Of a DNA stretch of 64,000 nt, positions 19,561-52,393 are shown piece after piece. The stretch spans positions 248,001 through 312,000 of the forward strand of contig NZ_RXLQ01000006.1 of NCBI RefSeq assembly GCF_003953935.1, read 5' to 3'. How positions within the stretch are numbered: position 1 is the first letter of the stretch; each line of letters opens with the position of its first letter. The notes beneath the pieces were generated by a model, which worked only from the letters and a program-made list of their open reading frames with translations, searched no databases and was not told the origin of the DNA. The position numbers were made by a program, and so were the translations under genes. The stretch is from Massilia atriviolacea (GTDB taxonomy: Bacteria > Pseudomonadota > Gammaproteobacteria > Burkholderiales > Burkholderiaceae_D).

Positions 19561-19632
19561 ATTTATATGATCGATATATAAATGCATAAACGAAATGGTA
19601 TTTGTCAGCCGCGCAGCCGCTGCTGCATAGTT
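19561..19632 (+). promoter_or_regulatory. Palindromic operator and promoter-like boxes upstream of TonB receptor 1
   Basis: The palindrome ATTTATAT-N7-ATATAAAT (19561-19583) is followed after 16 bases by ATTTGTCA (19600-19607), which contains a -35-like TTGTCA, and then by TGCATAGTT (19624-19632), which contains a -10-like CATAGT at an 18-base spacing. The same three elements occur at 36626-36745 and 45396-45467. If the promoter reading is right the palindrome is centred near -66, typical of a class I activator site, though repression by looping is possible. Start of the receptor gene is about 278 bases downstream. Confidence 0.6.
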
Positions 19633-19909
19633 GCCTGAGGCTGATCCACCAAGCAATCTTGCCAGTCGCCACTTGGTCATGCTGGTGACATATTCAATCA
19701 GTAGACTTGCGCGTTGCGCAGGGGAATGTCGCGGTCGGGCGCGCTCGCTCGACGGACCTGGAATGACGAACACGACAACGGCACGGCGTTTTATTTGACT
19801 GGTTTTTCGTGGCGGCGCCATCCGCGCCGCCAGCGCAGATTTGCAACAAAGTACAGAGGAAAGGCGTCGCCGCCTTTCACCATAACATGTCTTTTTTTGG
19901 GGTTACACA

Positions 19910-22900
19910 ATGATCAAACATAATCGGATGCAGGTCACCAAGCTGGCGCTGGCGCTATCGATCGCGCTGGCGACCTTGCCGGCCATGGCGCAGAACACCA
20001 CGTCGGCCATCGGCGGGCGCATCTCCGCCGCCGACGGCAAGCCAGCCAGCGGCGCGACCGTATCCATCGTCCACGCCGAATCCGGTTCCGTCAGCAATGT
20101 CGTCACCGATGGCGAAGGGCGCTATGTGGCACGCGGCCTGCGTTCGGGCGGTCCGTACACGATCATTATCACCAAAGACGGCATCACGGAAAAACGCGAA
20201 GGCGTGTTCATCCAGCTGGCCGAGACCGCGTCGGTCGACGCTACCCTGGGCGCGCCGATGCAGACCGTGACCATCGCCGGTTCGGCTGCCCGTTCCGACA
20301 AGTTCTCGAAAACCAGCATGGGCGCGGGCACCAACATCGGCTCGACCGAAATCGCCACCCAGGCATCGATCCAGCGCAACCTGCAGGACTACGCCCGTGC
20401 CGACCCGCGCGTGGCCCAGACCGACAAGGAACGCGGCGAAATCTCCGTGGCCGGCCAGAACTCGCGCTACAACTCGCTGACCATCGACGGCGTGGCCGTG
20501 AACGACACCTTCGGCCTGGAATCGAACGGCAGCCCGACCGCCAAGCAGCCGATCTCGATCGAAGCGATCCAGACCGTGCAGGTCAACGTCGCCAACTACG
20601 ACGTGACGCAAAAGGGCTATACCGGCGGCAATATCAACGCCGTCACCAAGTCCGGCACCAACACCGTCAAGGGCAGCGTCTACTACGTCTTCCGTAACGA
20701 CAAGCTGGCAGGCGACCGCTACAACAACGCCAACGACACTTACTACGCGCCGCCATCGTCCAAGGACACCACCGCCGGCTTCACCCTGGGCGGCCCGCTG
20801 ATCCAGGACAAGCTGTTCATTTTCGCCAACTACGAGAAGCTCGAATCGAGCCGTTCGGCGCCGGCCTTCGGCCCGCTGGGCAGCTCGCTGACCAACGTCG
20901 GCCTCACGCCTGCCTTCATTTCCTCGGCCCAGGGCATCGCCAAGGACCGCTTCGGCATCAATGCCGGCACCACCGATATCCCGAGCGGCGCCAAGCTGAA
21001 CGTGGAAGACGCGCTGGTCAAGGTCGACTGGAACATCAGCGACGACCACCGCGCCATGTTCCGTTACTCGAAGACCTCGCAGTCGGAGCCGCAATTTGCC
21101 GGTATTTCGGCCAACGGCCTGTCGCTCAACTCGCAGTGGTATGCGCAGGACAAGTCGATCGAAACCTTCGTGGCCCAGCTGACGTCCGACTGGACCCCGA
21201 ACTTCTCGACCGAATTCAAACTGTCGCAGCGCGACTACGACAGCGTGCCGACCCTGAACTCGCGCCTGCCGTCGATCAGCCTGTCGATGAGCGGCCCTAA
21301 CCCTGCCGGCACGCCGGCATCGGTCCCGACCACCAACCGCTCGCTGAACTTCGGTACCGAAAACAGCCGTCACCGCAACATCCTCGGCACCAAGACCGAC
21401 GACATCTACCTGGGCGCCAACTGGGCCCTGGGCGACCATGAAGTCAAGTTCGGCACCGACTACAGCAACAACAAGGTGTACAACGCCTTCCAGCAAAACA
21501 TTTTCGGTAACTACTCGTTCAGCTGCCAGAACAGCAGCAGCACCTGGACCTACAGCTTCGGCGCCATCACCTGCGGCAGCGCGACCCCGGCCCAGGTTGA
21601 ACAAGCCATCCTGGAAAACTTCAGCAAAGGCCGTCCGAGCTCGTACCAGGTGCAGGTTGCCGCACCTGGCATTAACCTGAACGACGCCGTGGCCGACTTC
21701 GCGCTGAAAAACTACGGCGCGTTTGTGCAGGATACCTGGACCATCAACCCACGCCTGACGCTGACCGCCGGCGTGCGTCTGGATGCCGCCCGCATCAGCG
21801 ACCGTCCGCGCCGCAACAATGCCATCGCCGCGGCGAAGATCGAAGGCAATGCCGCCACCGGCTTGCGCGAAAAAGGCGGTTATGGCCTGGACAACACGAA
21901 TACCTTCGACGGCCAGAACCTGATCCAGCCGCGTTTCGGCATCAACTACAACCTCGACACCACCCGCAAGATGCAAATCCGCGGTGGCGCCGGCCTGTTC
22001 CAGGGTAACGCTGCCGCTGTCTGGCTGTCGAACCCGTTCTCGAATCCTGGCGTGGCAACGACCACCGTCGGTTGCGGCACCGGCACCTTCGCTTCCTGCA
22101 ACGGCGCGACCATCTTCAGCGCCGATCCGGACCAGCAAAAGACCAACTTCGCCGGCGTGACCGCGCCAGCGGCCAACGTCGACATCCTGGCGCAAGGCTT
22201 GCGCCAGCCGTCGGTGTGGAAAGCCAACGTCGCCTTCGACATGGAACTGCCATGGTATGGCCTGGTCTTTTCCGCGGAATACCTGCACGTGAAGTCCAAG
22301 GATGCGATCTTCTACCAGAACCTGAACCTCGGCGCAGCAACCCGCAAGGGCAGCGACGGCCGCGACCTGTTCTACACCGCGCAGGGTTACAACCCATCGT
22401 GCTGGAGCGCGACCGGCAATGCCATCACCAGCGGCGGCGCCTGCGGCGGTTTCCGTTCCAAGGCACTGAGCAACGAATCGTTCGCCAACGTGCTGCTGGC
22501 GCAGAAGACCGACAAGGGCGGCAGCGGCATGGCCACCATGTCGATCAGCCGTCCGATGACCTCGGGCCTGGGCTGGTCGATGGCCTACACCTACACGGAC
22601 GCCAAGGAAGTCTCGCCACTGACCTCGTCGACCTCGAACTCGAACTTCACCGGCCGTTCGGTGTTCAATCCGAACGAAGAAGTCAACGCCAATTCGAGCT
22701 ACCTGGTCAAGAACCGCGTGAACGCCATTGTTAACTTCCAGAAGAACTTCTTCGGTGCTTACAAGACGCGTTTCGGCATGTTCTACGAAGGCCGTTCGGG
22801 CAAGCCATACAGCTGGACCGTCAACAACGACTTGAACGGCGACGGCTCCGGTGGTAACGACCTGATGTACATCCCGTCGGCGCCAGGTTCGGGCCAGGTG

Positions 22901-23332
22901 GTGTTTGCAGGCGACACGGCCACCAGCCGCGTCAACGAAGACAAGTTCTGGGGCATCGTCAACAGCAACAGCGTGCTGAAGAAAGCCGCTGGCGGCGTGG
23001 TTGGCCGTAACACGGACTTCTCGCCATGGAGCAACAGCTTCGACATGCGTATCGCCCAGGAACTGCCAGGCCTGTTCGCCAAGAACAAGGCCGTGTTCAG
23101 CCTCGACTTCTTCAACGTCGGCAACCTGCTGAACAAGAAATGGGGCCGTATCAATGAAGTCGGCTTCCAGGGCGCCGGCGCCCAGGCGCGCAGCTTCGTC
23201 GACTACGTCGGTCTCGATGCACAGGGCCGCTACATCTACAAAGTACGCGACAACGTCGAATCGCTGGACGTTCGCCAGACCAAGGGCGAATCGCAGTGGG
23301 CCATCCAGGCGACCGTCAAGTACGAATTCTGA
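19910..23332 (+). CDS. TonB-dependent receptor with carboxypeptidase-regulatory domain (Oar-like)
   Basis: A 1140-residue outer-membrane receptor. A signal peptide (cleavage after AMA, ~residue 27) precedes a carboxypeptidase-regulatory-like beta sandwich (~30-110), a plug (~125-245, with NSRYNSLTIDGVAVND) and a long beta barrel ending in the aromatic C-terminus VKYEF. The Oar-type architecture suggests import of large or polymeric substrates. Its position between a secreted adenosine deaminase and a 5'-nucleotidase/nuclease cluster, and the shared operator upstream, suggest nucleic acid fragments or nucleosides as substrate; this is inference. An intrinsic terminator follows at 23355. Confidence 0.9.
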   Translation: MIKHNRMQVTKLALALSIALATLPAMAQNTTSAIGGRISAADGKPASGATVSIVHAESGSVSNVVTDGEGRYVARGLRSGGPYTIIITKDGITEKREGVFIQLAETASVDATLGAPMQTVTIAGSAARSDKFSKTSMGAGTNIGSTEIATQASIQRNLQDYARADPRVAQTDKERGEISVAGQNSRYNSLTIDGVAVNDTFGLESNGSPTAKQPISIEAIQTVQVNVANYDVTQKGYTGGNINAVTKSGTNTVKGSVYYVFRNDKLAGDRYNNANDTYYAPPSSKDTTAGFTLGGPLIQDKLFIFANYEKLESSRSAPAFGPLGSSLTNVGLTPAFISSAQGIAKDRFGINAGTTDIPSGAKLNVEDALVKVDWNISDDHRAMFRYSKTSQSEPQFAGISANGLSLNSQWYAQDKSIETFVAQLTSDWTPNFSTEFKLSQRDYDSVPTLNSRLPSISLSMSGPNPAGTPASVPTTNRSLNFGTENSRHRNILGTKTDDIYLGANWALGDHEVKFGTDYSNNKVYNAFQQNIFGNYSFSCQNSSSTWTYSFGAITCGSATPAQVEQAILENFSKGRPSSYQVQVAAPGINLNDAVADFALKNYGAFVQDTWTINPRLTLTAGVRLDAARISDRPRRNNAIAAAKIEGNAATGLREKGGYGLDNTNTFDGQNLIQPRFGINYNLDTTRKMQIRGGAGLFQGNAAAVWLSNPFSNPGVATTTVGCGTGTFASCNGATIFSADPDQQKTNFAGVTAPAANVDILAQGLRQPSVWKANVAFDMELPWYGLVFSAEYLHVKSKDAIFYQNLNLGAATRKGSDGRDLFYTAQGYNPSCWSATGNAITSGGACGGFRSKALSNESFANVLLAQKTDKGGSGMATMSISRPMTSGLGWSMAYTYTDAKEVSPLTSSTSNSNFTGRSVFNPNEEVNANSSYLVKNRVNAIVNFQKNFFGAYKTRFGMFYEGRSGKPYSWTVNNDLNGDGSGGNDLMYIPSAPGSGQVVFAGDTATSRVNEDKFWGIVNSNSVLKKAAGGVVGRNTDFSPWSNSFDMRIAQELPGLFAKNKAVFSLDFFNVGNLLNKKWGRINEVGFQGAGAQARSFVDYVGLDAQGRYIYKVRDNVESLDVRQTKGESQWAIQATVKYEF

Positions 23333-23354
23333 TGCCTGGCTAAGTAATCCAAGG

Positions 23355-23386
23355 AACGGCCGGTGGCGACACTGGCCGTTTTTTTT
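23355..23386 (+). terminator. Intrinsic terminator of TonB receptor 1
   Basis: AACGGCC (23355-23361) pairs with GGCCGTT (23374-23380) and is directly followed by T residues to 23386. A clear Rho-independent terminator, separating the receptor transcript from the nuclease cluster. Confidence 0.88.
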
Positions 23387-23468
23387 CGTCCCGCGCGATA
23401 CATTCCCGCTACATTTCGGAGGGCATGGCGTCCGCTGCGGCATGCGCTCTTCGGTTATCCTACTGTCC

Positions 23469-25157
23469 ATGAAACTATTCTCAAGGCCCCTCTGCGCCGC
23501 GCTCGCCGCGGCCTTCCTGTCGGCGGGCTGCGCCACGCGCCCGACGGCCCCGATCGAGATCAACCTGGTAGCCCTGAACGACTTCCACGGCCATCTCGAT
23601 TCCACCAAATTCCAGTACACCAGCATCCACGCCAGCGGCCAGCAGACCGTGCAGGCCGGCGGCGTGGACACCATCGCCGCCGCCGTCCAGGCCTGGCGCC
23701 GCGAAGACAAGGACCTGCTGTTCGTCGGCGCCGGCGACCTGATTGGCGCCTCGCCGGCCATGTCGTCGATGTGGGCGGACGAGCCGGCGCTGGAGGCGCT
23801 GACCATGGCCGGCATGCGCATTTCGTCGGTCGGCAATCACGAATTCGATAACGGCCGCGCCGAACTGCTGCGCCAGCAGCGCGGCGGCTGCGACTCGATC
23901 CGTCCGCAAAAGGCTTGCCAGTTCGCGCCCGACTTCCGTGGCGCCGGCTTTACCTATCTGGCCGCCAACGTGATCGACGACGCCACCGGCAAGCCCTTCC
24001 TGCCGGCCTACCGGATCGAAGACGTCAAGGGCGTCAAGGTCGGCCTGATCGGCGCCGTGCTGCGCAACACCGCTTCGGTGGTGCTGGCTTCGGGCATCGT
24101 CGGATTGACGTTCGAAGACGAGGCGAGCGCCATCAACCGCGTGCTGCCGGCCATGCGCGCCGAGGGCGCACAGGTCTTCGTGGTGCTGATCCACGAAGGC
24201 GGACACACGCCGGAGCCGTTCGACAAACCCGATTGCAGCGCCCTCAAAGGGCCGGTGGTCGATATCGTCAAAAAGCTCGATCCGGCCATTCGCGTGATCG
24301 TCAGCGGCCATTCGCATACGGGCTTCCAGTGCAAGGTCGACGGACGCGTGGTGACCCAGGGCGAGATGGGCGGCCATGTCCTGTCGCGCATCAAGATGAT
24401 GGTCGATCCGGCCAGCGGCGCGGTGCGCGACATCGCGGTGCGCAACGTGATCATGAAACCGGGCCAGTATCCGCCCGACGAACGCGTGTCGGCCTACCTG
24501 AAGCTGGCGAAGGAACGCAGCGAGGCGGCGCTGGCGCGGCCGGTGGCGCGCGTGGCCGTGCGCTCGATCGACAAGAAGGAAAGCGCGGCCGGCGAAACCG
24601 TGCTTGGCGGCGTGATCGCCGATGCCGTGCTGGCCGCCACCAGATCGCAGGGCGTGCAGATCGGCTTCATGAACATGGGCGGCATGCGCCAGGACCTCGA
24701 CGTCGGCGCCAGTCTCACCGCCACCTACGGCGACGTGCAGATCGTGCTCCCGTTCGGGAACACCATCGTCGCCATGGACATGACAGGCGCCCAGATCCGC
24801 GCGCTGCTGGAACAGCAGTGGGCGCGCCCGAAGGCCAGCGTGGTCTCGGTGCTGCAGGTGTCGGACGGCTTCAGCTACCGCTGGAACCCGGCCGCGCCGA
24901 AGGGCCAGCGCGTGATCCACGACAGCGTTACCCTGAACGGCAAGGTGCTCGACGACGCCGGCGTGTACCGCGTGGCTGGCAATAACTTCCTGGCCGAAGG
25001 CGGCGACAGCTTCCCGGCGTTCGCCGCCGCGACCAACAAGCGCGATACGCAGATCCGCGATATCGACGCCGTGGTGCAGTTCCTGATCCAGCAGGACAAG
25101 GCGGGCAAACCGGCGGGCGCCGAAACGCCGCCGGGCCGCATCGGGACGGCGCAATGA
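23469..25157 (+). CDS. 5'-nucleotidase/UshA-family lipoprotein
   Basis: A 562-residue metallophosphoesterase plus 5'-nucleotidase C-terminal domain. The lipobox LSAGC near residue 20 predicts membrane anchoring through Cys. Metal-binding motifs are ALNDFHGHLD, GDLIGASP, GNHEFD and SGHSHTG; the C-terminal substrate domain (from about residue 340) includes NMGGMRQDL. It would remove 5' phosphates from nucleotides before uptake. The ATG at 23469 fits the lipoprotein signal peptide best; an upstream in-frame ATG (MRSSVILLS) is possible. Its stop overlaps the start of the next gene, so it heads a three-gene operon. Confidence 0.92.
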   Translation: MKLFSRPLCAALAAAFLSAGCATRPTAPIEINLVALNDFHGHLDSTKFQYTSIHASGQQTVQAGGVDTIAAAVQAWRREDKDLLFVGAGDLIGASPAMSSMWADEPALEALTMAGMRISSVGNHEFDNGRAELLRQQRGGCDSIRPQKACQFAPDFRGAGFTYLAANVIDDATGKPFLPAYRIEDVKGVKVGLIGAVLRNTASVVLASGIVGLTFEDEASAINRVLPAMRAEGAQVFVVLIHEGGHTPEPFDKPDCSALKGPVVDIVKKLDPAIRVIVSGHSHTGFQCKVDGRVVTQGEMGGHVLSRIKMMVDPASGAVRDIAVRNVIMKPGQYPPDERVSAYLKLAKERSEAALARPVARVAVRSIDKKESAAGETVLGGVIADAVLAATRSQGVQIGFMNMGGMRQDLDVGASLTATYGDVQIVLPFGNTIVAMDMTGAQIRALLEQQWARPKASVVSVLQVSDGFSYRWNPAAPKGQRVIHDSVTLNGKVLDDAGVYRVAGNNFLAEGGDSFPAFAAATNKRDTQIRDIDAVVQFLIQQDKAGKPAGAETPPGRIGTAQ

Positions 25158-26368
25158 TGTCCCTTCGGCGCGGCCTCGCCGCACTGCTTGCGCTGGTCCT
25201 GGGACCGCAGGCGCAGGCCGGATTTTCGATTCCCGGCTATGAACTGGTGCACACGGCGCCGGTGGAAACCACGCTCGTCAACCCCGACCTGCGCAGCAGC
25301 GCCGCAGTGTGGACCCAATTGTTCGACGAAGCGCGCAGCGAGATCGCGATCGGCCAGTTCTACGCCATCAGCAAGGCCGGCACCCCGTTCGACAAGGTGG
25401 TGGAACGGCTGGAGGCGGCCGGCGCGCGCGGCGTGAAGATCCGCTTCCTGCTCGACAAGAAGGGCATCGGCCTGTCCGATCCGGGCACCCTGGAGCGGCT
25501 GCGCAAGATCCCGAATCTGGAGATGCGCGTGCTCGATTACGCGCAGTTGACCGGCACCGGCATCATCCACGCCAAGTACCTCGCGGTGGACAGGAAGGCG
25601 GCGTTTATCGGCAGCCAGAACTTCGACTGGCGCGCGTTCACCCACATCCACGAGACCGGCCTGTTGATCACCGATGCGGCCATGGTGGCGCAGGTGCAGG
25701 CCGTGTTCGAACGCGACTGGCAGGCGCAGTCGCTGCTGGCGGCCAGGCTGGCCGTGCCGCGCGCGGTGTCCGCCAGCGTTGCGCCGCAGGCCGCGCAGCT
25801 GGTCGCCAGCCCGGCGGCCTACAATCCTCCCGGCGTAGCCGATTCCGAAGCGGTGCTGCCGGCCTTGCTGGCCGATGCGAAGAGCGAAGTGCGGATCCAG
25901 CTGCTCGACTACGCCCCGCTCGGCTACGGGCCCGACAACACGCGCCCGTACTACGGCGTGATCGACAACGCGGTGCGCGCAGCGGCTGGGCGCGGCGTGA
26001 AGATCAAGCTGATGGTCTCGAACTGGAACACCGACCAACCCGGCATCGCCTACCTGAAAAGCCTGGCGCTGCTGCCGAACGTGGAGGTGCGCATCGTCAC
26101 CTTGCCGGTGGCCTCGACCGGGCCGATTCCGTTCGCGCGCGTCATCCACAGCAAGACCATGACGATCGACGGCAAGCTGGCCTGGGTCGGCACCAGCAAC
26201 TGGGCCGGCGGCTACTTCGACAAGTCGCGCAACCTCGAAGTCGTGCTGCGCAACGAGAAGATGGCGCAGCGCCTTGGCGCGCTGCACGAGCAGGCCTGGA
26301 GCTCCTCGTACGCGGCGCCGATCGACGTCAAGCATGACTATCCAAAACCGAACAAGGGAAATGAATGA
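25154..26368 (+). CDS. Exported phospholipase D-fold protein (two HxK motifs)
   Basis: A 404-residue protein with a signal peptide (cleavage after AQA, ~residue 22) and two PLD half-domains. The catalytic motifs are HAKYLAVDRKAAFIGSQN (first) and HSKTMTIDGKLAWVGTSN (second), so both halves look active. The fold covers phospholipases, cardiolipin synthases and nucleases of the Nuc type. Because it is translationally coupled to a 5'-nucleotidase upstream (ATGATG overlap) and an S1/P1 nuclease downstream, an exported nuclease or phosphodiesterase role is the most likely; phospholipid hydrolysis cannot be excluded. Confidence 0.85.
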   Translation: MMSLRRGLAALLALVLGPQAQAGFSIPGYELVHTAPVETTLVNPDLRSSAAVWTQLFDEARSEIAIGQFYAISKAGTPFDKVVERLEAAGARGVKIRFLLDKKGIGLSDPGTLERLRKIPNLEMRVLDYAQLTGTGIIHAKYLAVDRKAAFIGSQNFDWRAFTHIHETGLLITDAAMVAQVQAVFERDWQAQSLLAARLAVPRAVSASVAPQAAQLVASPAAYNPPGVADSEAVLPALLADAKSEVRIQLLDYAPLGYGPDNTRPYYGVIDNAVRAAAGRGVKIKLMVSNWNTDQPGIAYLKSLALLPNVEVRIVTLPVASTGPIPFARVIHSKTMTIDGKLAWVGTSNWAGGYFDKSRNLEVVLRNEKMAQRLGALHEQAWSSSYAAPIDVKHDYPKPNKGNE

Positions 26369-27420
26369 TGAACAAACTGGCTTGTGTACTGGCGCTCGGC
26401 GCCGCCTTCGTGTCGGTGGACGCGCTGGCCTGGGGCGCCGAAGGGCACCGCGCGGTCGGCGCCATCGCCGAGAAACTGATCAAGGGCAGCAACGCGGAAA
26501 AACAGGTCGCGGCCTTGCTGCTGCCGGGCGAGAGCCTCGAATCGATCACCGTGTGGGCCGACAGCGCCAAGGGCGGCGCCGGCTACACGCCGCCGACCGC
26601 CGAGATGAACGCCTACACGGCGGTCAACCCGCGCCACAACGAGTATCACTACACCGACATCCCGTTCCAGAACGAGCACTATCACGATGGCGCGGTGGGT
26701 ACGGCCGATGTCGACATCGTGCAGACGCTCAAGCAGGCCATCGCGGTATTGCAGGGCAAGACCGACCCGGCGCTCAATCCCAACAAGCTGACCAAACGCC
26801 AGGCCTTGCTGCTGGTGGCGCACATGACCGGCGACATTCACCAGCCGCTGCATGTGGGTGCGGCCTTCGTGAGCAAGGATGGCAAGTTCGTGGTGCCGAA
26901 GAAGCACGAGGATATCGACAGCCTGAATATCTACGATTCGCGCGGCGGCAACAGCCTGCTGCTCGACGACGACAAGCTGACGTCCCTGAGCGCGAAGCTG
27001 ATCGAAGGCGAAGCCAAGCCGCTGCCGCCGGGCGCGCAGAAGTGGACCACGCGGCCGTTCCACTCGTACTGGGACAGCACCGTGGTCGACTACGCGATGC
27101 GCCGCATCAGCACCAGGACGCCGGAGCAGTTTGCGCAGAAGGTCATCGACAGCAAACCGGTGGTGGCGAAGAACACGGGCGACGCCACCAGCTGGCCGTA
27201 CCAGTGGGCCGACGATGCGCTGGCTGCGTCCAAGCTGGCGTATTCGGACGTGACGCCGGGCGCCATAGGCAAGCAGACCAACCGCAAGGGCGAGACCTAT
27301 TACACCTTCGGGCTGGAGATGGGATCGAACTACCCGGTGCCCAGTTCCGCGCTGGCCAAGACGCAGCTGATCAAAGGTGGATACAACCTGGCGTCGCTGC
27401 TGCAAACCATTTGGCCATAA
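26365..27420 (+). CDS. Exported S1/P1-type nuclease
   Basis: A 351-residue zinc nuclease that degrades single-stranded DNA and RNA to 5'-mononucleotides and has 3'-nucleotidase activity in characterised relatives. The signal peptide ends after DALA so that mature residue 1 is Trp (WGAEGHRAVG), which is itself a zinc ligand in this family. Other ligands are seen in NEYHYTDIPF, HMTGDIHQPLHV and the D-x-GGN segment. The start overlaps the previous stop by four bases. Its mononucleotide products would be substrates for the 5'-nucleotidase of the same operon. Confidence 0.93.
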   Translation: MMNKLACVLALGAAFVSVDALAWGAEGHRAVGAIAEKLIKGSNAEKQVAALLLPGESLESITVWADSAKGGAGYTPPTAEMNAYTAVNPRHNEYHYTDIPFQNEHYHDGAVGTADVDIVQTLKQAIAVLQGKTDPALNPNKLTKRQALLLVAHMTGDIHQPLHVGAAFVSKDGKFVVPKKHEDIDSLNIYDSRGGNSLLLDDDKLTSLSAKLIEGEAKPLPPGAQKWTTRPFHSYWDSTVVDYAMRRISTRTPEQFAQKVIDSKPVVAKNTGDATSWPYQWADDALAASKLAYSDVTPGAIGKQTNRKGETYYTFGLEMGSNYPVPSSALAKTQLIKGGYNLASLLQTIWP

Positions 27421-27457
27421 GTGCCGTAGGTCAGTTATTTCCAGCCCCTATCTCGTC

Positions 27458-27477
27458 GTCCCCGCGCAGGCGGGGAC
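27458..27477. repeat. REP-like hairpin
   Basis: GTCCCCGC and GCGGGGAC form a hairpin with the surrounding motif CGTCGTCCCCGCGCAGG and a CCCAAGTTCG flank that is shared with the repeat at 52394. It lies in the 88-base gap between the nuclease and MipA genes. Confidence 0.6.
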
Positions 27478-27508
27478 CCAAGTTCGCAATGTCACCTTGG
27501 ACTCCCAC

Positions 27509-28330
27509 ATGAAACTCGCCGCTGCCATCCTGCTCGCATTTCCGATCGTCGCCTGCGCCGCACCGGCCGAAAACAAGCCGCTCCCTCTATGGGAAGCCGG
27601 CGTCCTTGGCGGTGTTGCGTCCACGCCGGCCTACCCCGGTTCGGCCGACCGCTCGTCGCGCGGCCTGCTGCTGCCGTTCCTGATCTACCGGGGCAAGGTA
27701 TTCCGCGCCGATCAATCGGGCATCGGCGCGCGCCTGGTCAAGCGCGAAGCGGTCGAACTCGACGTCGGCCTGGCCGCCTCGCTGCCGGCGCGGTCGGACG
27801 ATGTGGCTGCGCGCGCCGGCATGCCGAACCTCGGCACCTTGCTCGAATTCGGCCCGCGCCTGAAGGTGCGCGTAACCGAGCCGAGTGCGTCGAGCCGGAT
27901 TCGCCTCGACATCCCGCTGCGCGCCGTGATCGAAGCGCGCGCCGGCGTGCGCACGCAGGGTTTCACCTTCGAGCCGAAGGTGGTGTACGAGATGCGCAGC
28001 GCCGACGGCCTGTGGACTTTCGATGCCAACGCGGGCGTGGTCATCGGCGACAAAAAGGTAAACCGCTACTTCTACGAAGTGCAGCCGCAGTATGCCAATT
28101 CCACGCGGCCGGCCTATCAGGCCGATGCGGGGTTGATGCTGACGCGGGTGGGGGCGAGCGCCTCGCGCATGATCAACCAGGATGTGCGCATCTTCGGCTT
28201 CATGCGCCTGGAGAGTTATGCGGGCGCTGCCAATGAAGACAGCCCGCTGATGAAGAAGAAGTCCGGCGCGTCGGCAGGGGTGGCGTTTGCGTGGACCTTG
28301 GGCCGGTCGACGCGCATGGCGGGTGATTGA
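27509..28330 (+). CDS. MipA/OmpV family outer-membrane protein
   Basis: A 273-residue exported protein (signal peptide ending near AFPIVACAA) of the MipA/OmpV beta-barrel family: LWEAGVLGGVASTPAYPGS near the mature N-terminus and the LLPFLIYRGKVFRAD strand are typical. E. coli MipA is a scaffold for MltA and PBP1B, but most homologues are uncharacterised outer-membrane barrels. Downstream of an exported nuclease operon, a diffusion or anchoring role in nucleotide uptake is possible but unproven. Confidence 0.85.
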   Translation: MKLAAAILLAFPIVACAAPAENKPLPLWEAGVLGGVASTPAYPGSADRSSRGLLLPFLIYRGKVFRADQSGIGARLVKREAVELDVGLAASLPARSDDVAARAGMPNLGTLLEFGPRLKVRVTEPSASSRIRLDIPLRAVIEARAGVRTQGFTFEPKVVYEMRSADGLWTFDANAGVVIGDKKVNRYFYEVQPQYANSTRPAYQADAGLMLTRVGASASRMINQDVRIFGFMRLESYAGAANEDSPLMKKKSGASAGVAFAWTLGRSTRMAGD

Positions 28331-30588: not shown

Positions 30589-31557
30589 TCAACGCGATTT
30601 GACGAACGGCTTGCCGATCGCTTTGGGCGCGACCGACTTGGCCATCAGCCCGGCCAGCACGATCACGGTCACCACGTACGGCACCATCTGGATCAGCGAA
30701 CCCGGAATGCGGCCGATACCGGGCAAGTCCACGCCTTCGATCTGGATCTGCACCGCGCTGAAAAAGCCGAACATCATGCAGCCCAGTGCCGTGTACATCG
30801 GCCGCCAGTTACCGAACACCAGCGCGGTCAGCGCCAGGTAGCCGGCACCGGCCGACATATCGCGCAGGAAGAAGCCGCTCTGCACGATCGCCAGGTACGC
30901 GCCCGAGAACGAGCACAGGATGCCCGCCACCAGCATCGCCATGTAGCGCGTGGTGGCGACGCTGACGCCGGCCGCATCGGCCGCGTGCGGATTTTCGCCG
31001 CAGGCGCGCAGGCGCAGGCCGAAGCGGCTGTGGTAGATCACCCAGTGCACCAGCGGGATCAGCGCGAACGCCAGGTACACCAGCGCCGAATGGCCGCCGA
31101 TCACATGCCCGTAGAACCAGCCGATGAAGGGAATGCCGGCCAAGGCCTCGGTGCCCGGCAGGACGATGTCGAACAGGCGCGCCTGGCCCAGGTCCGGCGT
31201 GCGGCCGCCCTGCTGGTAGAAGAACTGGGCCAGCACGAAGGTCAGGCCGCTCATGGCGATGTTGATCGCGATCCCGCCGACCAGCTGGTTGCCCTTCTGG
31301 GTGATGCTGACGTAACCCTGCAGCAGCGCCAGGGCGGCCGACACGGCCACGCCGGCAGCCACGCCGTACCAGGCGTTCTGGGTGGTGAAGGCGACGGCTG
31401 CCGAGACGAACGCGCTGGCCAGGATCTTGCCCTCCAGGGCGATATCGACCACGCCGCTGCGTTCGGCGAACAGGCCGGCCATCGCGGCAAAAATCAGCAC
31501 GGGGGCATTGCGGATCGTGGAGACGACAATGCTGGATAGATGAAGGTCTTCGAACAT
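30589..31557 (-). CDS. Nucleoside-type ABC transporter permease 2
   Basis: A 322-residue BPD_transp_2 family permease with about nine helices; the N-terminal RNAPVLIFAAMAGLFAERSG and the VDIALEGK motif are typical of the nucleoside importers that pair with BMP-family binding proteins (BmpA/NupA-type systems). It follows permease 1 with a three-base gap and is the fourth gene of the BMP importer operon. Confidence 0.9.
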   Translation of the reverse strand: MFEDLHLSSIVVSTIRNAPVLIFAAMAGLFAERSGVVDIALEGKILASAFVSAAVAFTTQNAWYGVAAGVAVSAALALLQGYVSITQKGNQLVGGIAINIAMSGLTFVLAQFFYQQGGRTPDLGQARLFDIVLPGTEALAGIPFIGWFYGHVIGGHSALVYLAFALIPLVHWVIYHSRFGLRLRACGENPHAADAAGVSVATTRYMAMLVAGILCSFSGAYLAIVQSGFFLRDMSAGAGYLALTALVFGNWRPMYTALGCMMFGFFSAVQIQIEGVDLPGIGRIPGSLIQMVPYVVTVIVLAGLMAKSVAPKAIGKPFVKSR

Positions 31558-31560
31558 GGC

Positions 31561-32639: not shown

Positions 32640-32643
<4 letters not shown>
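31561..32643 (-). CDS. Nucleoside-type ABC transporter permease 1
   Basis: A 360-residue inner-membrane permease of the same family, with the FNIGSEGQMYVGGLG motif near residue 85 that contacts the ATPase. The start overlaps the ATPase stop by four bases (ATGA). Together with permease 2 it forms the heterodimeric channel of the BMP importer. Confidence 0.9.
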
Positions 32644-34169
<1,526 letters not shown>

Positions 34170-34205
34170 AGCGGTCAGTGGTGAGTAGTAAAGGTAAATG
34201 AGTTC

Positions 34206-34247
34206 AAAAGCGCGCCGGGCTGGTTCTCACCAGCGCGGCGCGCTTTT
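34206..34247 (-). terminator. Strong hairpin between binding-protein and ATPase genes (attenuator)
   Basis: An 18-base inverted repeat (AAAAGCGCGCCG arm and its inverse, loop TTCTCA) is flanked by A and T runs. In the minus direction it ends in TTTT, so it can act as a partial terminator. Such a structure after the first ABC gene would raise the amount of binding protein over the membrane components. Confidence 0.7.
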
Positions 34248-34265
34248 CTGGAGTGCGGGGAAAAT

Positions 34266-35261
34266 CTAGACCGGGCAGCTGCTGCCAACGCGGTAGTCGA
34301 CCACTTTGACTTTGCCGCTGACGATGTTGGCCTTGGCTTCGTTGACGCGTTTTTCGATTTCCGGCGTGACGACCGCGCGGTTATCCTTGTCCAGCGCCCA
34401 ATCGACGCCGCCTTCCTTCAGGCCCTTGTGGGTGACGCCGGCTTTCCAGGTACCGTTCTTCACCTGCATGAAGGAGTCGTAGATCGCCAGGTCGACGCGC
34501 TTGACCATGGAGGTCAGCATGGTGCCCGGATGGAGATAGTTCTGGTTCGAGTCGACGCCGATGGCCAGCTTGCCTTTTTCCTTGGCCGTCTGCAGGGTGC
34601 CCATGCCGCTGCCGCCGGCAACGGCGAACACCACGTCCACGCCACGGTCGAACTGCGCGCGCGCCAGCTCGCCGCCCTTGGCCGGATCGTTCCAGGCCGC
34701 GGCGGTGGTGCCGACCATGTTCTGCATGGTCTCGATTTTCGGATTGGTCGCTTTCGCGCCCTGGGCGTAACCGCAGGCGAAGGTGCGGATCAGCGGAATG
34801 TCCATGCCGCCCACGAAGCCGATTTTTTTCGACTTCGATGCGATGGCGGCGGCCACGCCGGCCAGGTAGGAGCCTTCTTCTTCCTTGAACAGGATCGAAT
34901 TGACGTTGTTACCCTTGGCTACAGCGTCGATCAGCACGAAGCGCACGTTCGGGAATTCCTGCGCGACCTTCTGCACGGCCTGGGTCTGCGAGAAGCCGAC
35001 GGCGGCGATCAGGTCCATCTTCTTGCGCGCCAGGCCGCGCAGCACTTGCTCGGCCTGGGTATCGCTGCTGGCCTGCGCCTCGATGTATTTGATGTTGGTC
35101 TCTTTCTTGAAGCGCTCGGCGCCTTCGAAAGCGGACTGGTTGAACGACTTGTCGAACTTGCCGCCGGCGTCGTACACGATGCCCAATTTCGGGTCGGCAG
35201 CCGCGGCGCTCGCCGCGACGCACAGCGCCGCGATCGTGATACTAAGTTGCTTTAATTTCAT
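34266..35261 (-). CDS. BMP-family periplasmic nucleoside-binding protein
   Basis: A 331-residue substrate-binding protein with signal peptide (cleavage ...ASAAAA, ~residue 22) and no lipobox, hence periplasmic. KLGIVYDAGGKFDKSFNQSAFEG and the VGGMDIPLIRTFACGYAQGA segment are hallmarks of the BMP/PnrA family, whose characterised members bind purine nucleosides. An AGGAG binding site precedes the ATG at 35261, ruling out the longer frame. It follows transaldolase by 79 bases and opens the importer genes. Confidence 0.93.
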   Translation of the reverse strand: MKLKQLSITIAALCVAASAAAADPKLGIVYDAGGKFDKSFNQSAFEGAERFKKETNIKYIEAQASSDTQAEQVLRGLARKKMDLIAAVGFSQTQAVQKVAQEFPNVRFVLIDAVAKGNNVNSILFKEEEGSYLAGVAAAIASKSKKIGFVGGMDIPLIRTFACGYAQGAKATNPKIETMQNMVGTTAAAWNDPAKGGELARAQFDRGVDVVFAVAGGSGMGTLQTAKEKGKLAIGVDSNQNYLHPGTMLTSMVKRVDLAIYDSFMQVKNGTWKAGVTHKGLKEGGVDWALDKDNRAVVTPEIEKRVNEAKANIVSGKVKVVDYRVGSSCPV

Positions 35262-35340
35262 GACTTCACTCCTGGAAAGCGATATTGTACCCGGCACACC
35301 GGCTGCGATGGGACGAAAGGAATGCGTAAGCTTAACGACA

Positions 35341-36420
35341 CTAAGCAAGCAAAGCCAGCAAATTGGCGTGTGCTTGCTCGAATTGTGTCAGTCCGGCGCG
35401 CAAGAGGTCGTTACCAATTGTATCGAGTTCGATGCCGTGGCGGCCCAGTTGCGTCAGTACCGCGCGCGCCCCGTCGACGTCCTCGATCAGCGACAGGCGC
35501 GCTTGGCCATGGTCGCGAAACGCCGCCAGGGTCGCATCGGGCACGGTATTGACGGTGTCCGCGCCGATCAGTTCTTCGACGTAGACGACGTCGCGCATGG
35601 CCGGATCCTTGACGCCGGTGCTGGCCCACAGCAGCCATTGCGGCGTGGCGCCGAAGGCGGCGAAGATGGCGAAGCCGCTGTCGTTGCGGGACTCGTGGTA
35701 GGCCACGCGCGCGGCGGCGATGGCCGCCTTGCCGCGCAGGGCCGCGGCGGCCGGCGGCAGCAGGGCGTCGACGGCGGCGTCGACCCGGCTGATAAATACA
35801 CTGGCCACGCTGGCGATGCGCTGCACCGACAGTGTGGCTTCCAGGCGGCGCGCCAGGCCACGGCGATGCGCGGCGCGCACGGCGGCCAGCTGTCCGGCGC
35901 TGAAAATCAGGGTGACGTTCACGTTGATGCCGGCGTAAATCACTTCTTCCAGCGCCGCGATGCCCGCTTCGGTGGCGGGAATCTTGATCATCGCATTCGG
36001 CCGGCCGATCGCGGCCCACAGGCGCTGGGCCTCGGCCAGCGTGCCGGCGGCATCGTGCGCCAGGCGCGGCGAGACTTCGAAGCTGACAAAACCCGCACGC
36101 CCGTCGCTGTCGGCGTACAGGGGCGCGAACAGGTCGCACGCGGCCTGCACGTCGGGCAGGACCAGCGCTTCGAAGCGCGCTTCAGGATCGGCATGGGCCG
36201 CGCGCAAAGCCGGCAGCGCGGCCTGGTAGGCGCCATCGCTGCGGATCGCGTTGTAGAAAATGGAGGGATTCGAGGTCACGCCCTGGATGCCGTCGTCGGC
36301 GATCCAGCGCGCCAGCTGGTTTGAAGCGATCAGGTCGCGGCTGAGCTTATCGAGCCAGATTTGCTGGCCCAGCCCGGCGACGGCCTTGAGGCGGCTGGCG
36401 GATGCACTAACTTGGTTCAT
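35341..36420 (-). CDS. tal: Transaldolase
   Basis: A 359-residue class of transaldolase that moves a dihydroxyacetone unit between sedoheptulose 7-phosphate and glyceraldehyde 3-phosphate. Motifs GVTSNPSIF near the N-terminus and NAMIKIPAT, containing the Schiff-base Lys, are intact. It is first in line before the nucleoside importer on the minus strand and divergent from TonB receptor 2. That makes sense if it drains pentose phosphate released from nucleosides. Confidence 0.93.
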   Translation of the reverse strand: MNQVSASASRLKAVAGLGQQIWLDKLSRDLIASNQLARWIADDGIQGVTSNPSIFYNAIRSDGAYQAALPALRAAHADPEARFEALVLPDVQAACDLFAPLYADSDGRAGFVSFEVSPRLAHDAAGTLAEAQRLWAAIGRPNAMIKIPATEAGIAALEEVIYAGINVNVTLIFSAGQLAAVRAAHRRGLARRLEATLSVQRIASVASVFISRVDAAVDALLPPAAAALRGKAAIAAARVAYHESRNDSGFAIFAAFGATPQWLLWASTGVKDPAMRDVVYVEELIGADTVNTVPDATLAAFRDHGQARLSLIEDVDGARAVLTQLGRHGIELDTIGNDLLRAGLTQFEQAHANLLALLA

Positions 36421-36625: not shown

Positions 36626-36745
36626 AACTATGCATCAGCCAGAATATGTATGGCAAATACGATTTTGCTTGCTCATTTATATGATCGAAATATAAATGAA
36701 AACGCATTTGCCATGATTTCGGGTCAATTCTTTTCATGCTACGAT
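36626..36745. promoter_or_regulatory. Shared operator with divergent promoter-like boxes (tal/ABC and TonB receptor 2)
   Basis: The central palindrome ATTTATAT-N7-ATATAAAT (36675-36697) is flanked on both sides by the promoter box: ATTTGCCA on the minus strand exactly 16 bases away (plus-strand ATGGCAAAT 36650-36658), and ATTTGCCA on the plus strand 8 bases away (36706-36713). TGCATAGTT follows on the minus strand (36626-36634) and an extended -10-like TGCTACGAT on the plus strand (36737-36745). One operator could thus serve both divergent transcripts. Apart from this and the 36449 palindrome, the 485-base gap holds no gene I can support. Confidence 0.6.
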
Positions 36746-36905
36746 GCCCAGGCAGCAACAAAATACGGACGGAAACGCAGTCGCAGCAGGGTGATCGGGG
36801 CCATTTTGTGCGCTGCAAGGCGCCGTCAGCCAGGGTCGTCCATGCCGATGCGAACCGGAACGCAGGTTTCATCAAATGGTTCATCGACCTAAGGAATTAC
36901 CTACA

Positions 36906-39197
36906 ATGACAATCAAGAGCAAGCAGTTCGCCACCCGTTCGCTGATCGCGCTGGCAGTCGCCGGCGCCTTTCCGCTGCACGCCGCGCTGGCACAGGACAA
37001 GCCAGCCGAACAAGCCAGGCCGCAGGCCGGCCAGCTGGAAACCGTCATCGTGACCGCGCAGCGCCGTTCCGAGAACATCAAGGACGTGCCGATGGCGATC
37101 ACCACGCTCAAAGGCGAAAAGCTCGACGTGCTGACCTCCGGCGGCCAGGACATCCGCTTCCTGTCGGGCCGTTCGCCAAGCCTGAACATCGAATCCGACT
37201 ACGGCCGTTCGTTCCCGCGCTTTTACATCCGTGGCCAGGGTAATACCGATTTCGACCTGAACGCATCGCAGCCGGTCGGCCTGGTGGTCGACGACATCGT
37301 GCAGGAAAGCCCGATGCTCAAAGGCTTCCCGGTGTTCGACGTCGACCAGGTGGAAGTGCTGCGCGGCCCGCAGGGCACCCTGTTCGGCCGTAACTCGCCG
37401 GCCGGCGTGATCAAGTTCGACTCGGCCAAGCCGGTCATCGGCAAGCAGGAAGGCTATGCCACCGTCGGCATCGGCAACTACCGCGCGCGCAACCTGGAAG
37501 GCGCGGTCAACCTGCCGATCAGCGACACCGTCGCCGCGCGCATCTCGGTGCAGTCGCAGAACCGCGACGACCGCGTGCACAGCGCCCGTCCGGGCAACGG
37601 CACCAAGAATTTCGAAGGCTACCACGACGATGCGCTGCGCCTGCAGGTGCTGGTCAAGCCGACCAGCGCCTTCAGCGCCCTGTTCAATGTGCATGCGCGC
37701 GACATGGATGGCAGCGCGACCCTGTTCCGCGCGAATATCCTGAAAAAAGGCACGAATGAACTGGTCGACGGCTTCGAATACAGCCGTTACGACACCGATG
37801 GCGTCAACGAACAGCGCCTCGCCACCGAAGGCGCCAGCATGCGCCTGCGCCTGGACCTGGCCGGGGTGACGCTGCATTCGATCACCGGCTACGAGTCGGC
37901 CGACTTCTACAGCCGCGCCGACGTCGACGGCGGCTACGGCGCCGTGTACGCGCAGCCGATGGGCCCGAGCTACGCCAACCAGGCCGCGTTCATTCCCTTC
38001 GTGGTCGAAACGGCCGACGTGCTGCCGAAGCACCGCCAGTTCACCCAGGAGTTCCGCGCGGAGTCGGTCAACAGCGGTCCGCTGCAGTGGATCGCCGGCC
38101 TGTTCTACTTTAACGAAGACATCCAGATCGACAGCATCAGCTTCGACTCGCTGGCGCCGGGCAATCCGCAGAACCCGTTCTTCGCGACCCAGTTCCAGGA
38201 CACCAAATCGTGGGCCGCTTTCGGTTCGCTGAACTACACCGTGTCCGACAAGTTCAAGCTGCGCGGCGGCCTGCGCTACACCAACGACAAGAAGAACTTC
38301 GCCGCCAAGCGCGTCGAACTGACCACCGCCGGTCCTTTCGGGATCAGCAACGAGTCGACCAACGTCAGCTGGGACCTGTCCGGTACCTACGCCCTCAGCC
38401 CCGACTCCAACCTGTTCGCGCGCGTCGCCACCGGCTATCGCGCACCGAGCATGCAGGGCCGCCTGAACGGCCTGGCCGACCGTCCATCGTTCGCCGAAGC
38501 CGAAAAAGCGCTGTCGTACGAAGCCGGTATCAAGCAGGACCTGTTCAACCGCCGCGCGCGCCTGTCGGCCAGCGTGTTCCAGTACCGCGTCAAGGACAAG
38601 CAGCTGACCGCCGGTTCGGGCCAGATCAACATGAACCAGTTGATCAACGCCGACCGCGTGACCGGCCAGGGTGTGGAACTGGACTTCCAGGCCAACCTGT
38701 CTGACGCACTGCGCATGACCCTCGGCGGCAGCTTCAACGACACCGAAATCAAGGACTCCGACCTGTTCGTGCAAACCTGCGGCAATGAGCCGAACACCAA
38801 GGGCGTGAACGGTTGCACCCCGACCGGCGTGGCGGGTCCTTTCGCGTACACCCAAAAGCTGAACGGCAACCCGCTGCCGCGCGCACCGAAGTGGCAGGCC
38901 AACTTCACCCTGCGTTACAGCGTGCCGCTGGCCGATGGCGAGTTCTTTGCGTACACCGACTGGGCTTATCGCAGCACCTACAATATGTTCCTGTACGAAG
39001 CCAAGGAATACAAGGCCAAGTCGCTGGTCGAAGGCGGCCTGCGCATGGGCTACAAGTGGGATAACTACGAAGTGGCAGCGTTCGCGCGCAACATCACCGA
39101 CAAGGTACAGTCGGTCGGCGCGATCGACTTCGACAACCTGACCGGCATCGTCAACGAACCGCGTACCCTGGGCGTGCAGCTCAAGGCGACGTTCTAA
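36906..39197 (+). CDS. TonB-dependent receptor 2
   Basis: A 763-residue outer-membrane receptor. Signal peptide (cleavage after ALAQ, ~residue 31), TonB box-like LETVIVTAQRR, a plug domain (~50-165 with VEVLRGPQGTLFGRNSPAG) and a 22-strand-type barrel ending in LKATF. ATG 36906 is preceded by TAAGGAA and gives a normal signal peptide. The class resembles receptors for small molecules rather than the long Oar-type. The shared operator with the nucleoside importer suggests nucleosides as substrate; this is inference from context. Confidence 0.9.
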   Translation: MTIKSKQFATRSLIALAVAGAFPLHAALAQDKPAEQARPQAGQLETVIVTAQRRSENIKDVPMAITTLKGEKLDVLTSGGQDIRFLSGRSPSLNIESDYGRSFPRFYIRGQGNTDFDLNASQPVGLVVDDIVQESPMLKGFPVFDVDQVEVLRGPQGTLFGRNSPAGVIKFDSAKPVIGKQEGYATVGIGNYRARNLEGAVNLPISDTVAARISVQSQNRDDRVHSARPGNGTKNFEGYHDDALRLQVLVKPTSAFSALFNVHARDMDGSATLFRANILKKGTNELVDGFEYSRYDTDGVNEQRLATEGASMRLRLDLAGVTLHSITGYESADFYSRADVDGGYGAVYAQPMGPSYANQAAFIPFVVETADVLPKHRQFTQEFRAESVNSGPLQWIAGLFYFNEDIQIDSISFDSLAPGNPQNPFFATQFQDTKSWAAFGSLNYTVSDKFKLRGGLRYTNDKKNFAAKRVELTTAGPFGISNESTNVSWDLSGTYALSPDSNLFARVATGYRAPSMQGRLNGLADRPSFAEAEKALSYEAGIKQDLFNRRARLSASVFQYRVKDKQLTAGSGQINMNQLINADRVTGQGVELDFQANLSDALRMTLGGSFNDTEIKDSDLFVQTCGNEPNTKGVNGCTPTGVAGPFAYTQKLNGNPLPRAPKWQANFTLRYSVPLADGEFFAYTDWAYRSTYNMFLYEAKEYKAKSLVEGGLRMGYKWDNYEVAAFARNITDKVQSVGAIDFDNLTGIVNEPRTLGVQLKATF

Positions 39198-44119: not shown

Positions 44120-44121
44120 GG

Positions 44122-45276
44122 TCAGTCCTGGTAGAGAGCGTTGAACGGTTGCTGGGCGCCGGGCAGGGCGTCGGGATTCGGAATCTCGGCGAGGACTTCC
44201 GCCGTCAGGTAAGGGCACACGGTTTCTTCGCAGGCGAGTGTCATGGCCGACAACTGCAGGCCGCGCCGGCAGGCCAGCGTCAGATCGTCGTCGCCCTGGA
44301 ACAGGGACCAGCATACCGCAGCGGCAAAGGCGTCGCCCGCACCGGTGACGTCGACGATGCGCGCCGCCGGCGCGTCCAGCTGGGCGATGCCGCTGGCGGT
44401 GGTGTAGATCACGCCGGTGGCGCCGCGCGTGACGATGACGTCCTGCGCGCCCTGCGCCTGGATGGCGCGGCAGGCGGCCAGGAAGTCGGCGTCGGTCTTG
44501 AGCGGCGTACCGATGCGCGCTTCGAGTTCGCCCTGGTTCAGGATCAGCAGGCGCAGGCCGCGCAGGTCGTCCGGCAGGTGCGCCATTTTCGGCTGCGATA
44601 CCGCCACCAGCACCAGCGGCACCGCGCCGCGCGCGGCATCGTCGAGCAGCATGCGCAGGGTCTCGCGCGGCAGGTTCAGGTCGGCCACGATCAGGGCGCC
44701 GACGGCGCGCTGCGGCTGGCGCGTGTCCAGGAAGGCGGGCGTGAGGGCGTCGTACAGGGCCATGTCGGCCAATGCCAGCAGCATTTCGCCATGGTCGTCC
44801 AGCACCGCGGTGTAGGTGCCGCTGCACACGCCCGTCAGGTGCAGGCTGGCGCGGGTGTCGATCCCGGCCGCCTCGGCGTGCGCCAGCAGCGCCTTGCCGG
44901 AGGAGTCGTCGCCGATGGCGGTGATCAGCGCGACGGGCGCGGACAGGCGCGCCAGGTTCTCGGCGATGTTGCGGGCCACGCCGCCGAACGATTCGTCCTG
45001 GCGCGCCGGATTCGAGGTGCCCATCCTGAGCGTGGCGAGGGAGCGCAGCTTGCGGTCGAGGTTGGCCGCGCCGAGGCAGACGATGGGCCGGTTATCGGGC
45101 AGCACATAGGCGCGCCCGAGCAGGCGGCGGTCGCGGATCAGGCCGGCGATGTAGCCGGCCACGGCGGAGCGCGACAAACCCAGCACGCTTGCCAGGTCCT
45201 GCTGCGAGATGAAGGGATTTGCACGGATCAGTTCGTACAACTGGTCTTTTTTGGAGAGTTCGGTCACAATATGCAA
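44122..45276 (-). CDS. psuK: Pseudouridine kinase with N-terminal helix-turn-helix
   Basis: A 384-residue PfkB-family kinase fused to a DNA-binding domain. Residues ~1-60 form a winged HTH ([27 protein letters not shown]); residues ~65-370 carry the PfkB fold with [14 protein letters not shown] near the start and the catalytic DVTGAGDAF. It phosphorylates pseudouridine for PsuG. The HTH resembles that of E. coli YeiI, so the enzyme may also regulate its own operon or the divergent nucleoside operon. The intergenic DNA contains the palindromes 45323-45335 and 45396-45418. Confidence 0.9.
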
Positions 45277-45322
45277 TCATTAAACAATTGTTGGCGATGT
45301 TAGACAAATGTCTTAATGCTGT

Positions 45323-45335
45323 CAATCAATGATTG
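45323..45335. promoter_or_regulatory. Palindrome upstream of psuK
   Basis: CAATCA-A-TGATTG is a perfect 13-base palindrome 47 bases upstream of the psuK start, next to a near-palindrome AGACAAATGTCT (45302-45313). Either could be the operator for an autoregulating HTH-kinase. Confidence 0.4.
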
Positions 45336-45395
45336 TGTCCTGCTCTCCTATAGTGTGCCTGATTGGATGGTGGCGTCCAAGGGATTCTAGCGTGG

Positions 45396-45467
45396 ATTTA
45401 TATGTTCCGCGTATAAATGAGGAAGAAAAATGGTATTTGCCATACATATCCCTGATCATGCATAGTT
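45396..45467 (+). promoter_or_regulatory. Operator and promoter-like boxes of the nucleoside phosphorylase/deo operon
   Basis: ATTTATAT-N7-GTATAAAT (45396-45418, one arm mismatch) is followed after exactly 16 bases by ATTTGCCA (45435-45442) and by TGCATAGTT (45459-45467) at the same distances as upstream of TonB receptor 1. -35-like TTGCCA and -10-like CATAGT are 18 bases apart; a TATAAT at 45467-45472 is a second possible -10 but at a poor spacing. The start codon is 86 bases further on. Confidence 0.6.
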
Positions 45468-52391: not shown

Positions 52392-52393
52392 AT

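What the first reader, a model, noticed from the sequence alone, without database searches (positions are those of the whole stretch)
19561..45467. Conserved operator-promoter module at three nucleoside loci
An ATTTATAT-N7-ATATAAAT palindrome occurs at 19561-19583, 36675-36697 and 45396-45418 (last with one mismatch). In three of four possible directions an ATTTGyCA box begins exactly 16 bases beyond it, and TGCATAGTT follows 36-40 bases beyond it. The sites precede TonB receptor 1, tal/ABC importer plus TonB receptor 2 (divergent), and the purine nucleoside phosphorylase-deo operon. These loci are 9-17 kb apart, so shared architecture implies one regulator. Centred near -66, the palindrome looks like an activator site. 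I know of no described regulator with this motif; the factor may be encoded outside the window.
Basis: partly seen in the sequence, partly recalled or inferred. Interest (0 to 1): 0.85.

Follow-up and report, generated by a model that had tools for sequence, protein, structure and literature searches.

The report
XapR-type nucleoside regulon with TonB receptors
Three matching DNA switches in a bacterium close to Massilia most likely let one regulator, encoded in the same stretch and related to E. coli XapR, turn on nucleoside uptake and breakdown together; the kind of switch is known, but its set of targets is wider here than in E. coli.

Summary
ATTTATAT-N7-ATATAAAT lies at the three stated places, and the fuller module ATTTAT-N11-ATAAAT-N14-GTATTTGyCA occurs three times in the window without mismatch, never in shuffles. 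It recurs at fixed spacing before the same genes in related genera. The two boxes are best read as the -35 region, probably overlapped by a second activator site, and the -10. It passes the NCBIfam model on which E. coli XapR scores best and groups with enterobacterial XapR in a tree. That gene was found in 101 of 294 family genomes; all 101 carry the module, against 21 of the other 193. The rival HTH-PfkB protein fails in both directions, on few independent contrasts. Enterobacterial xapA promoters have the same geometry with other half-sites. Best reading: a XapR-type activator with an enlarged regulon (pnp-deo operon, tal/Bmp-ABC importer, two outer-membrane receptors). Binding, activation and inducer are inferred, not shown.

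The parts
19561..19583 (.). palindrome 1 (upstream activator site, inferred)
   Evidence: 0 mismatches; composite 19561-19607 + with 0 mismatches
19598..19607 (+). GTATTTGTCA: -35 region TTGTCA and probable second activator site
   Evidence: TTTGyC at +18 in 3 of 4 promoters of this gene class kept for the count
19626..19631 (+). CATAGT, putative -10
   Evidence: among 4 promoters of this class GCATAk at +42 in 2 and at +41 in 2
   Evidence: PF25183, PF13620; no plug-domain hit in that search, so the TonB label is inferred
23154..28330 (+). 5'-nucleotidase, PLD-like, S1/P1 nuclease and MipA genes after receptor 1
   Evidence: membership in one transcript is inferred
36675..36697 (.). palindrome 2, between two divergent genes
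   Evidence: 0 mismatches
36651..36660 (-). GTATTTGCCA on the tal/Bmp side
   Evidence: composite 36651-36697 - with 0 mismatches; 9 of 9 tal promoters
36627..36632 (-). CATAGT, putative -10 on the tal/Bmp side
   Evidence: 9 of 9 tal promoters
36740..36745 (+). TACGAT within TGCTACGAT, putative extended -10 on the receptor 2 side
   Evidence: TGCTAnnrT in 19 of 19
30589..36420 (-). tal, Bmp-type binding protein, ABC ATPase and two permease genes
   Evidence: PF00923, PF02608, PF00005, PF02653 twice
36876..39197 (+). TonB-dependent receptor 2
   Evidence: PF00593 and PF07715
42261..43160 (-). XapR-family LysR-type regulator, the proposed binder
   Evidence: NF007439 323 bits, cut-off 290
44122..45264 (-). 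winged-HTH/PfkB kinase fusion, divergent from palindrome 3: rival binder
   Evidence: PF00294 and PF13412; 167 bits against cut-off 561 for its best NCBIfam model
45396..45418 (.). palindrome 3
   Evidence: 1 mismatch to the 16-base palindrome, 0 to the composite
45433..45442 (+). GTATTTGCCA: -35 region and probable second activator site
   Evidence: TTTGyC at +18 in 72 of 73 pnp promoters
45461..45466 (+). CATAGT, putative -10
   Evidence: GCATAk at +42 in 70 of 73 pnp promoters
45553..54194 (+). XapA-type purine nucleoside phosphorylase, then phosphopentomutase-type, deoC, aldehyde dehydrogenase, deoA and two deaminase genes
   Evidence: one transcript is inferred

Best explanation
The three sites are operator-promoters of one XapR-type LysR activator encoded in the window at 42261-43160 (-). 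The 23-bp palindrome (core ATTTAT-N11-ATAAAT, a T-N11-A box) is its main site at -66; GTATTTGyCA, about three helical turns downstream, overlaps the -35 and is the weaker activation site; CATAGT is the -10. With a nucleoside bound, the regulator is expected to engage the -35 region and recruit RNA polymerase, so that outer-membrane uptake, the Bmp/ABC importer, transaldolase and the pnp-deo pathway rise together. Palindrome 2 probably serves two divergent promoters at equal distance. Shown: the sites, their spacing, conservation, gene context, co-occurrence with the regulator gene and its family. Inferred: binding, activation, inducer, the -35/-10 assignment.
For: Module unique to three places in window and genome. 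Fixed spacing in 72 of 73 (box) and 70 of 73 (-10) pnp promoters. All 101 family genomes in which the LysR gene was found carry the composite, against 21 of the other 193; the same pattern with one more base in the linker is in 17 of 294. G019 has the LysR gene, no HTH-PfkB hit, and two 0-mismatch modules, one beside the LysR gene. NF007439: window protein 323 bits, G019's 319, E. coli XapR 531, cut-off 290; three other LysR proteins tested score 193-253. 40% identity with XapR over 296 residues. Tree: sister to enterobacterial XapR, 90/73, inside a clade of 100/97. In 13 of 13 xapA promoters of Enterobacterales a 23-bp palindrome stands N14 before (G/A)TATTGG, with TATAAn at +43 to +48 in 12 of 13. 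PMC7205307 (passages): two XapR sites in the xapAB promoter, one partly over -35, one upstream; losing the upstream one greatly weakens the xanthosine response.
Against: No binding or expression data. LysR and HTH-PfkB genes are linked and share 100 genomes, so the co-occurrence rests on few independent contrasts (G019 on one side; g32 and g2 on the other). G184 has a 0-mismatch module without a LysR hit at E<=1e-90. The 16-base palindrome alone is also found without the LysR gene, for instance with 0 mismatches in G012 and G053, where no second box was found. A CidR-like LysR gene in G202 stands beside a similar palindrome, so the motif is not exclusive to XapR. The sister grouping with XapR is only moderately supported (90/73). 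The palindrome is degenerate in part of genus g18 (15 of 24 pnp promoters at 2-4 mismatches to the 16-base form). Half-sites differ from those of Enterobacterales.
Confidence: 0.85

Rival explanations
1. The HTH-PfkB fusion (44122-45264) binds the palindrome and senses a nucleoside or sugar through its kinase domain.
For: It lies directly beside palindrome 3, has an HTH domain, and is found in 100 of the 101 genomes that have the LysR gene.
Against: Of 16 genomes with it but without the LysR gene (15 of g32, 1 of g2), 3 have a composite hit; the fetched stretches of all 16 show none. G019 lacks it and has two 0-mismatch modules.
Confidence: 0.06
2. Another regulator encoded elsewhere (another LysR-type protein or another family) binds the palindrome.
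For: LysR-type genes are many; a CidR-like one in G202 stands beside a similar palindrome; G184 has the module without the gene at the cut-off used.
Against: Complete agreement of module and the 42261-43160 orthologue in 101 of 101 genomes; XapR promoters have the same geometry. PunR matches only over the HTH region, 38% of 87 residues.
Confidence: 0.08
3. AT-rich chance similarity or a structural DNA feature without a dedicated regulator.
For: The sites are AT-rich spots in a window of 65% G+C; hits at the mismatch limit do occur in genomes without the regulator.
Against: 0 in shuffles; 0 reversed-pattern hits in 17 of 17 genomes of the own genus; a one-base change of the linker cuts the scan from 122 to 17 of 294 genomes; arms and boxes are kept while spacers vary.
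Confidence: 0.01

Closest known systems
E. coli XapR and the xapAB promoter
   Same: LysR-type regulator of the same NCBIfam model; controls a XapA-type phosphorylase gene, 67% identical here; 23-bp palindrome, N14, TATT box over -35, -10 at +43 to +48.
   Different: 40% identity; half-site ATTTATA here, ATyrATA there; here the module also precedes tal/Bmp-ABC and receptor genes and the phosphorylase leads into deo genes, whereas E. coli has xapA-xapB.
E. coli PunR (LysR-type, purine nucleoside transporter)
   Same: LysR type, purine nucleosides (listing and abstract start only).
   Different: Own model NF008294; resemblance to the window protein confined to 87 residues of the HTH region.
CytR and DeoR of E. 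coli
   Same: Co-ordinate nucleoside uptake and deo genes (recalled).
   Different: Repressors of other families with other operators (recalled; not compared here).

Membership tests
XapR family | Passes the NCBIfam equivalog on which E. coli XapR scores best (NF007439; that PRK09986 means XapR is recalled, its description says only LysR family) | tested here: met
   323 bits, cut-off 290; XapR 531
XapR family | Groups with enterobacterial XapR in a protein tree | tested here: met
   Sister at 90/73 within 100/97; 41 rows, 39 of the 80 loci used
XapR family | Linked to a xanthosine-phosphorylase-type gene preceded by its site | tested here: met
   TIGR01699 410.6 bits, cut-off 370.9; module before it
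XapR family | Same operator-promoter geometry as xapA | tested here: met
   13 of 13 for N14, 12 of 13 for the -10
XapR family | Same half-site sequence | tested here: not met
   ATTTATA here, ATyrATA in Enterobacterales; not taken as a defining feature of the protein family
XapR family | Activation of transcription in response to xanthosine | not testable with these tools
   needs expression and binding assays
LysR-type activator promoters | T-N11-A dyad near -65 plus a second site near -35 | tested here: met
   ATTTAT-N11-ATAAAT centred at -66 and a conserved -35-side box; that the box is a binding site is inferred
HTH-PfkB regulator (rival) | Presence tracks the module | tested here: not met
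   3 of 16 genomes with it but without the LysR gene have a hit; G019 has modules without it

The most novel reading that the evidence does not exclude
In Oxalobacteraceae a XapR-type activator has been widened from one operon to a whole nucleic-acid scavenging programme, with rewritten half-sites but unchanged promoter geometry; and one operator drives two divergent promoters of unlike make, one with the -35-side activator box and one with only an extended -10 at the same distance.
Probability: 0.55. Interest if true: 0.5.

Novelty: new variant of a known kind. Interest (0 to 1): 0.42.

Why it matters
It names a testable regulator for a conserved nucleoside regulon of Massilia, Duganella, Janthinobacterium and kin, ties two outer-membrane proteins of unknown substrate to nucleosides, and offers two XapR lineages with equal promoter geometry but different half-sites, useful for studying how LysR specificity changes. 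The mechanism itself is that of a known activator family, so the surprise is modest.

Tried and rejected
HTH-PfkB as binder: favoured at first for its place beside palindrome 3, dropped. PunR: dropped. A match further upstream of E. coli xapA (ATTAAT-N11-ATAAAT, 1 mismatch) was first taken as the homologous site; 16 of 2000 plain shuffles do as well, none of the other 12 records has a 1-mismatch copy, and the site at N14 fits better. The C18:25645 palindrome lacks the second box and is treated as chance.

Literature: searches listed no paper on this regulon in Oxalobacteraceae; titles and abstract starts were seen, and only PMC7205307 was opened, as passages. The library holds open-licence papers only; the 1995 and 1999 XapR papers are not held. 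Regulon databases could not be searched.

Limits of counts. Promoter spacing was measured on 100 fetched stretches plus the window, not on all 101 LysR-positive genomes, and only within 450 bases of a gene. Rows with more than 4 mismatches were dropped: pnp 1 of 74 (G019, where pnp lies inside an operon), TBDT1 2 of 6, Bmp 10 of 11, ABC 46 of 52, tal 0 of 9, TBDT2 0 of 19. Five g32 ABC rows that stayed in have neither box. In G019 the -10 stands at +42 instead of +43. The palindrome pattern was written after seeing the alignment; its spacing to the box was not fitted to the window module. The comparison was tallied by hand from the two tables, and rechecked. 'Without the LysR gene' means no hit at E<=1e-90. 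Of the 21 such genomes with a composite hit, matches of 16 are in the capped list: 14 at 3 mismatches only, G202 at 2, G184 at 0.
Full report
What was checked. The palindrome ATTTATAT-N7-ATATAAAT is at 19561, 36675 and 45396 as stated, and 100 shuffles of the window give none. The window is C54:248001-312000 of a 7.36-Mb genome in which, at up to 1 mismatch, one further copy exists. With the second box added (ATTTAT-N11-ATAAAT-N14-GTATTTGyCA) the window holds three copies, each without mismatch, and the genome three at up to 3 mismatches.

What surrounds it. Site 2 lies between tal/Bmp/ABC importer genes and a TonB-dependent receptor gene with plug and barrel. Site 3 precedes a XapA-type phosphorylase followed by phosphopentomutase-type, deoC, aldehyde dehydrogenase, deoA and deaminase genes. 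Between sites 2 and 3 lie a LysR-type gene, 42261-43160 (-), and a winged-HTH/PfkB fusion, 44122-45264 (-).

Conservation. In 73 pnp promoters of five genera (g1 14, g4 4, g6 5, g18 24, g40 26) TTTGyC stands at +18 in 72 and GCATAk at +42 in 70; tal promoters 9 of 9 for both; TBDT1 promoters 3 of 4 for the box and 2 of 4 at +42, 2 at +41. Spacer columns vary while the arms, AAGAAAAA, GGTATTTGCCATACATAT and TGCATAGT are kept. The receptor 2 direction has no such box but keeps TGCTAnnrT in 19 of 19. In the 101 stretches (100 fetched, and the window) 129 modules were found: 74 before pnp, 38 before Bmp, 9 before tal, 6 before TBDT1, 1 before ABC genes, 1 at a stretch edge; the 15 stretches of g32, 1 of g2, 4 of g12 and 1 of g26 held none. 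The stretches were chosen around this cluster or around palindrome hits, so the genome-wide evidence is.

Which protein binds. The palindrome alone, at up to 1 mismatch, is in 101 of 294 family genomes and 18 of 44 genera, some without the regulator. The composite is in 122 of 294, and with one base more in the linker in 17 of 294. The LysR gene is in 101 of 294, six genera. All 101 carry the composite; so do 21 of the other 193, of which 16 have listed matches: 14 at 3 mismatches, one at 2, one (G184) at 0. The HTH-PfkB gene is in 116 of 294: 100 shared with the LysR gene and 16 without it (15 of g32, 1 of g2), of which 3 have a composite hit. G019 has the LysR gene, no HTH-PfkB hit, and two modules without mismatch: one between the LysR gene and ABC-pnp-deo genes, one before Bmp/ABC genes. 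In evolutionary terms these are few contrasts, but both directions agree.

What kind of LysR protein. It scores 323 bits on NF007439 (cut-off 290), the model on which E. coli XapR scores 531; three other LysR proteins score 205, 193 and 253. It is 40% identical to XapR over 296 residues. In a tree of 41 LysR proteins it is sister to enterobacterial XapR (90/73) within a clade of 100/97 that also holds two Xanthobacteraceae proteins. Named records with close relatives are of Massilia, Duganella, Janthinobacterium, Rugamonas and Pseudoduganella.

The XapR promoter compared. Upstream of xapA in E. coli and 12 other records of Enterobacterales, 13 of 13 hold ATyrATA-N9-TATyrAT with 0 (7) or 1 (6) mismatch, N14, then GTATTGG (12) or ATATTGG (1); TATAAn stands at +43 to +48 in 12 of 13 and one base earlier in the other. 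The window module has palindrome, N14, GTATTTG, and CATAGT at +43 to +48. PMC7205307 (passages) reports two XapR sites in the xapAB promoter, one partly over -35 and one upstream, and a strong loss of response to xanthosine without the upstream one. This fits the palindrome as upstream site and GTATTTGyCA as the -35-side site.

Most likely working. Nucleosides enter through the outer-membrane proteins and the importer; one of them, by analogy xanthosine or another purine nucleoside, binds the LysR protein, which activates the four promoters; a positive loop through uptake is expected as described for E. coli. No module was found directed at the LysR gene in the window, in line with the statement in PMC7205307 that xapR seems not to be autoregulated. 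Inducer, binding and activation are inferred.

Results that do not fit neatly. G184 carries a perfect module at the end of a 7.7-kb contig, with no LysR hit at the cut-off. In G202 a CidR-like LysR gene stands beside a similar palindrome, so the palindrome belongs to more than one LysR lineage. In part of g18 the palindrome is worn while the boxes are intact.

Verdict.

Noticed in passing
L297:4836, L298:5199, L308:5170 (g6, Janthinobacterium-type): A further module with 1 mismatch, far from the cluster, before a response-regulator gene pair that follows a large LTD/exonuclease-endonuclease-phosphatase protein gene (gene families tested in L297 only). The capped list shows such a site in 16 of the 26 g6 genomes.
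   Followed up: partly
L299:5038, L300:5105 (g6): A second receptor 2-like gene (71% and 74%) lies opposite an HD_5-domain gene, with a module of 2-3 mismatches between them.
   Followed up: partly
L296:7578 (G184, g23): A 0-mismatch module at the end of a short contig in a genome without a LysR hit at E<=1e-90; the gene it would drive is cut off. Unexplained; contamination or a missing contig is possible.
   Followed up: partly
L307:1136 and 2606 (G202, g7): Similar palindromes with an AAAAAAAGTATTT box beside a CidR-like LysR gene, an SBF-family transporter gene and a 2-dehydropantoate 2-reductase gene; other g7 genomes have like hits.
   Followed up: partly
L201 (E. coli xapA upstream): Besides the conserved site, ATTAAT-N11-ATAAAT stands further upstream; not found at 1 mismatch in the 12 other records.
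   Followed up: partly
window 11245-19246: Xanthine dehydrogenase-type subunits, an amidohydrolase and an adenosine deaminase-family gene lie just before site 1, extending the purine theme.
   Followed up: no
window 44122-45264: The HTH-PfkB fusion is kept beside pnp in five genera and is also found in g32 near Bmp/ABC genes; its own role, kinase or regulator, is open.
   Followed up: partly
g32 stretches L092-L106: In most of these 15 stretches a second, 26-30% similar PfkB-like gene lies near the HTH-PfkB gene and Bmp/ABC genes, without any module.
   Followed up: no
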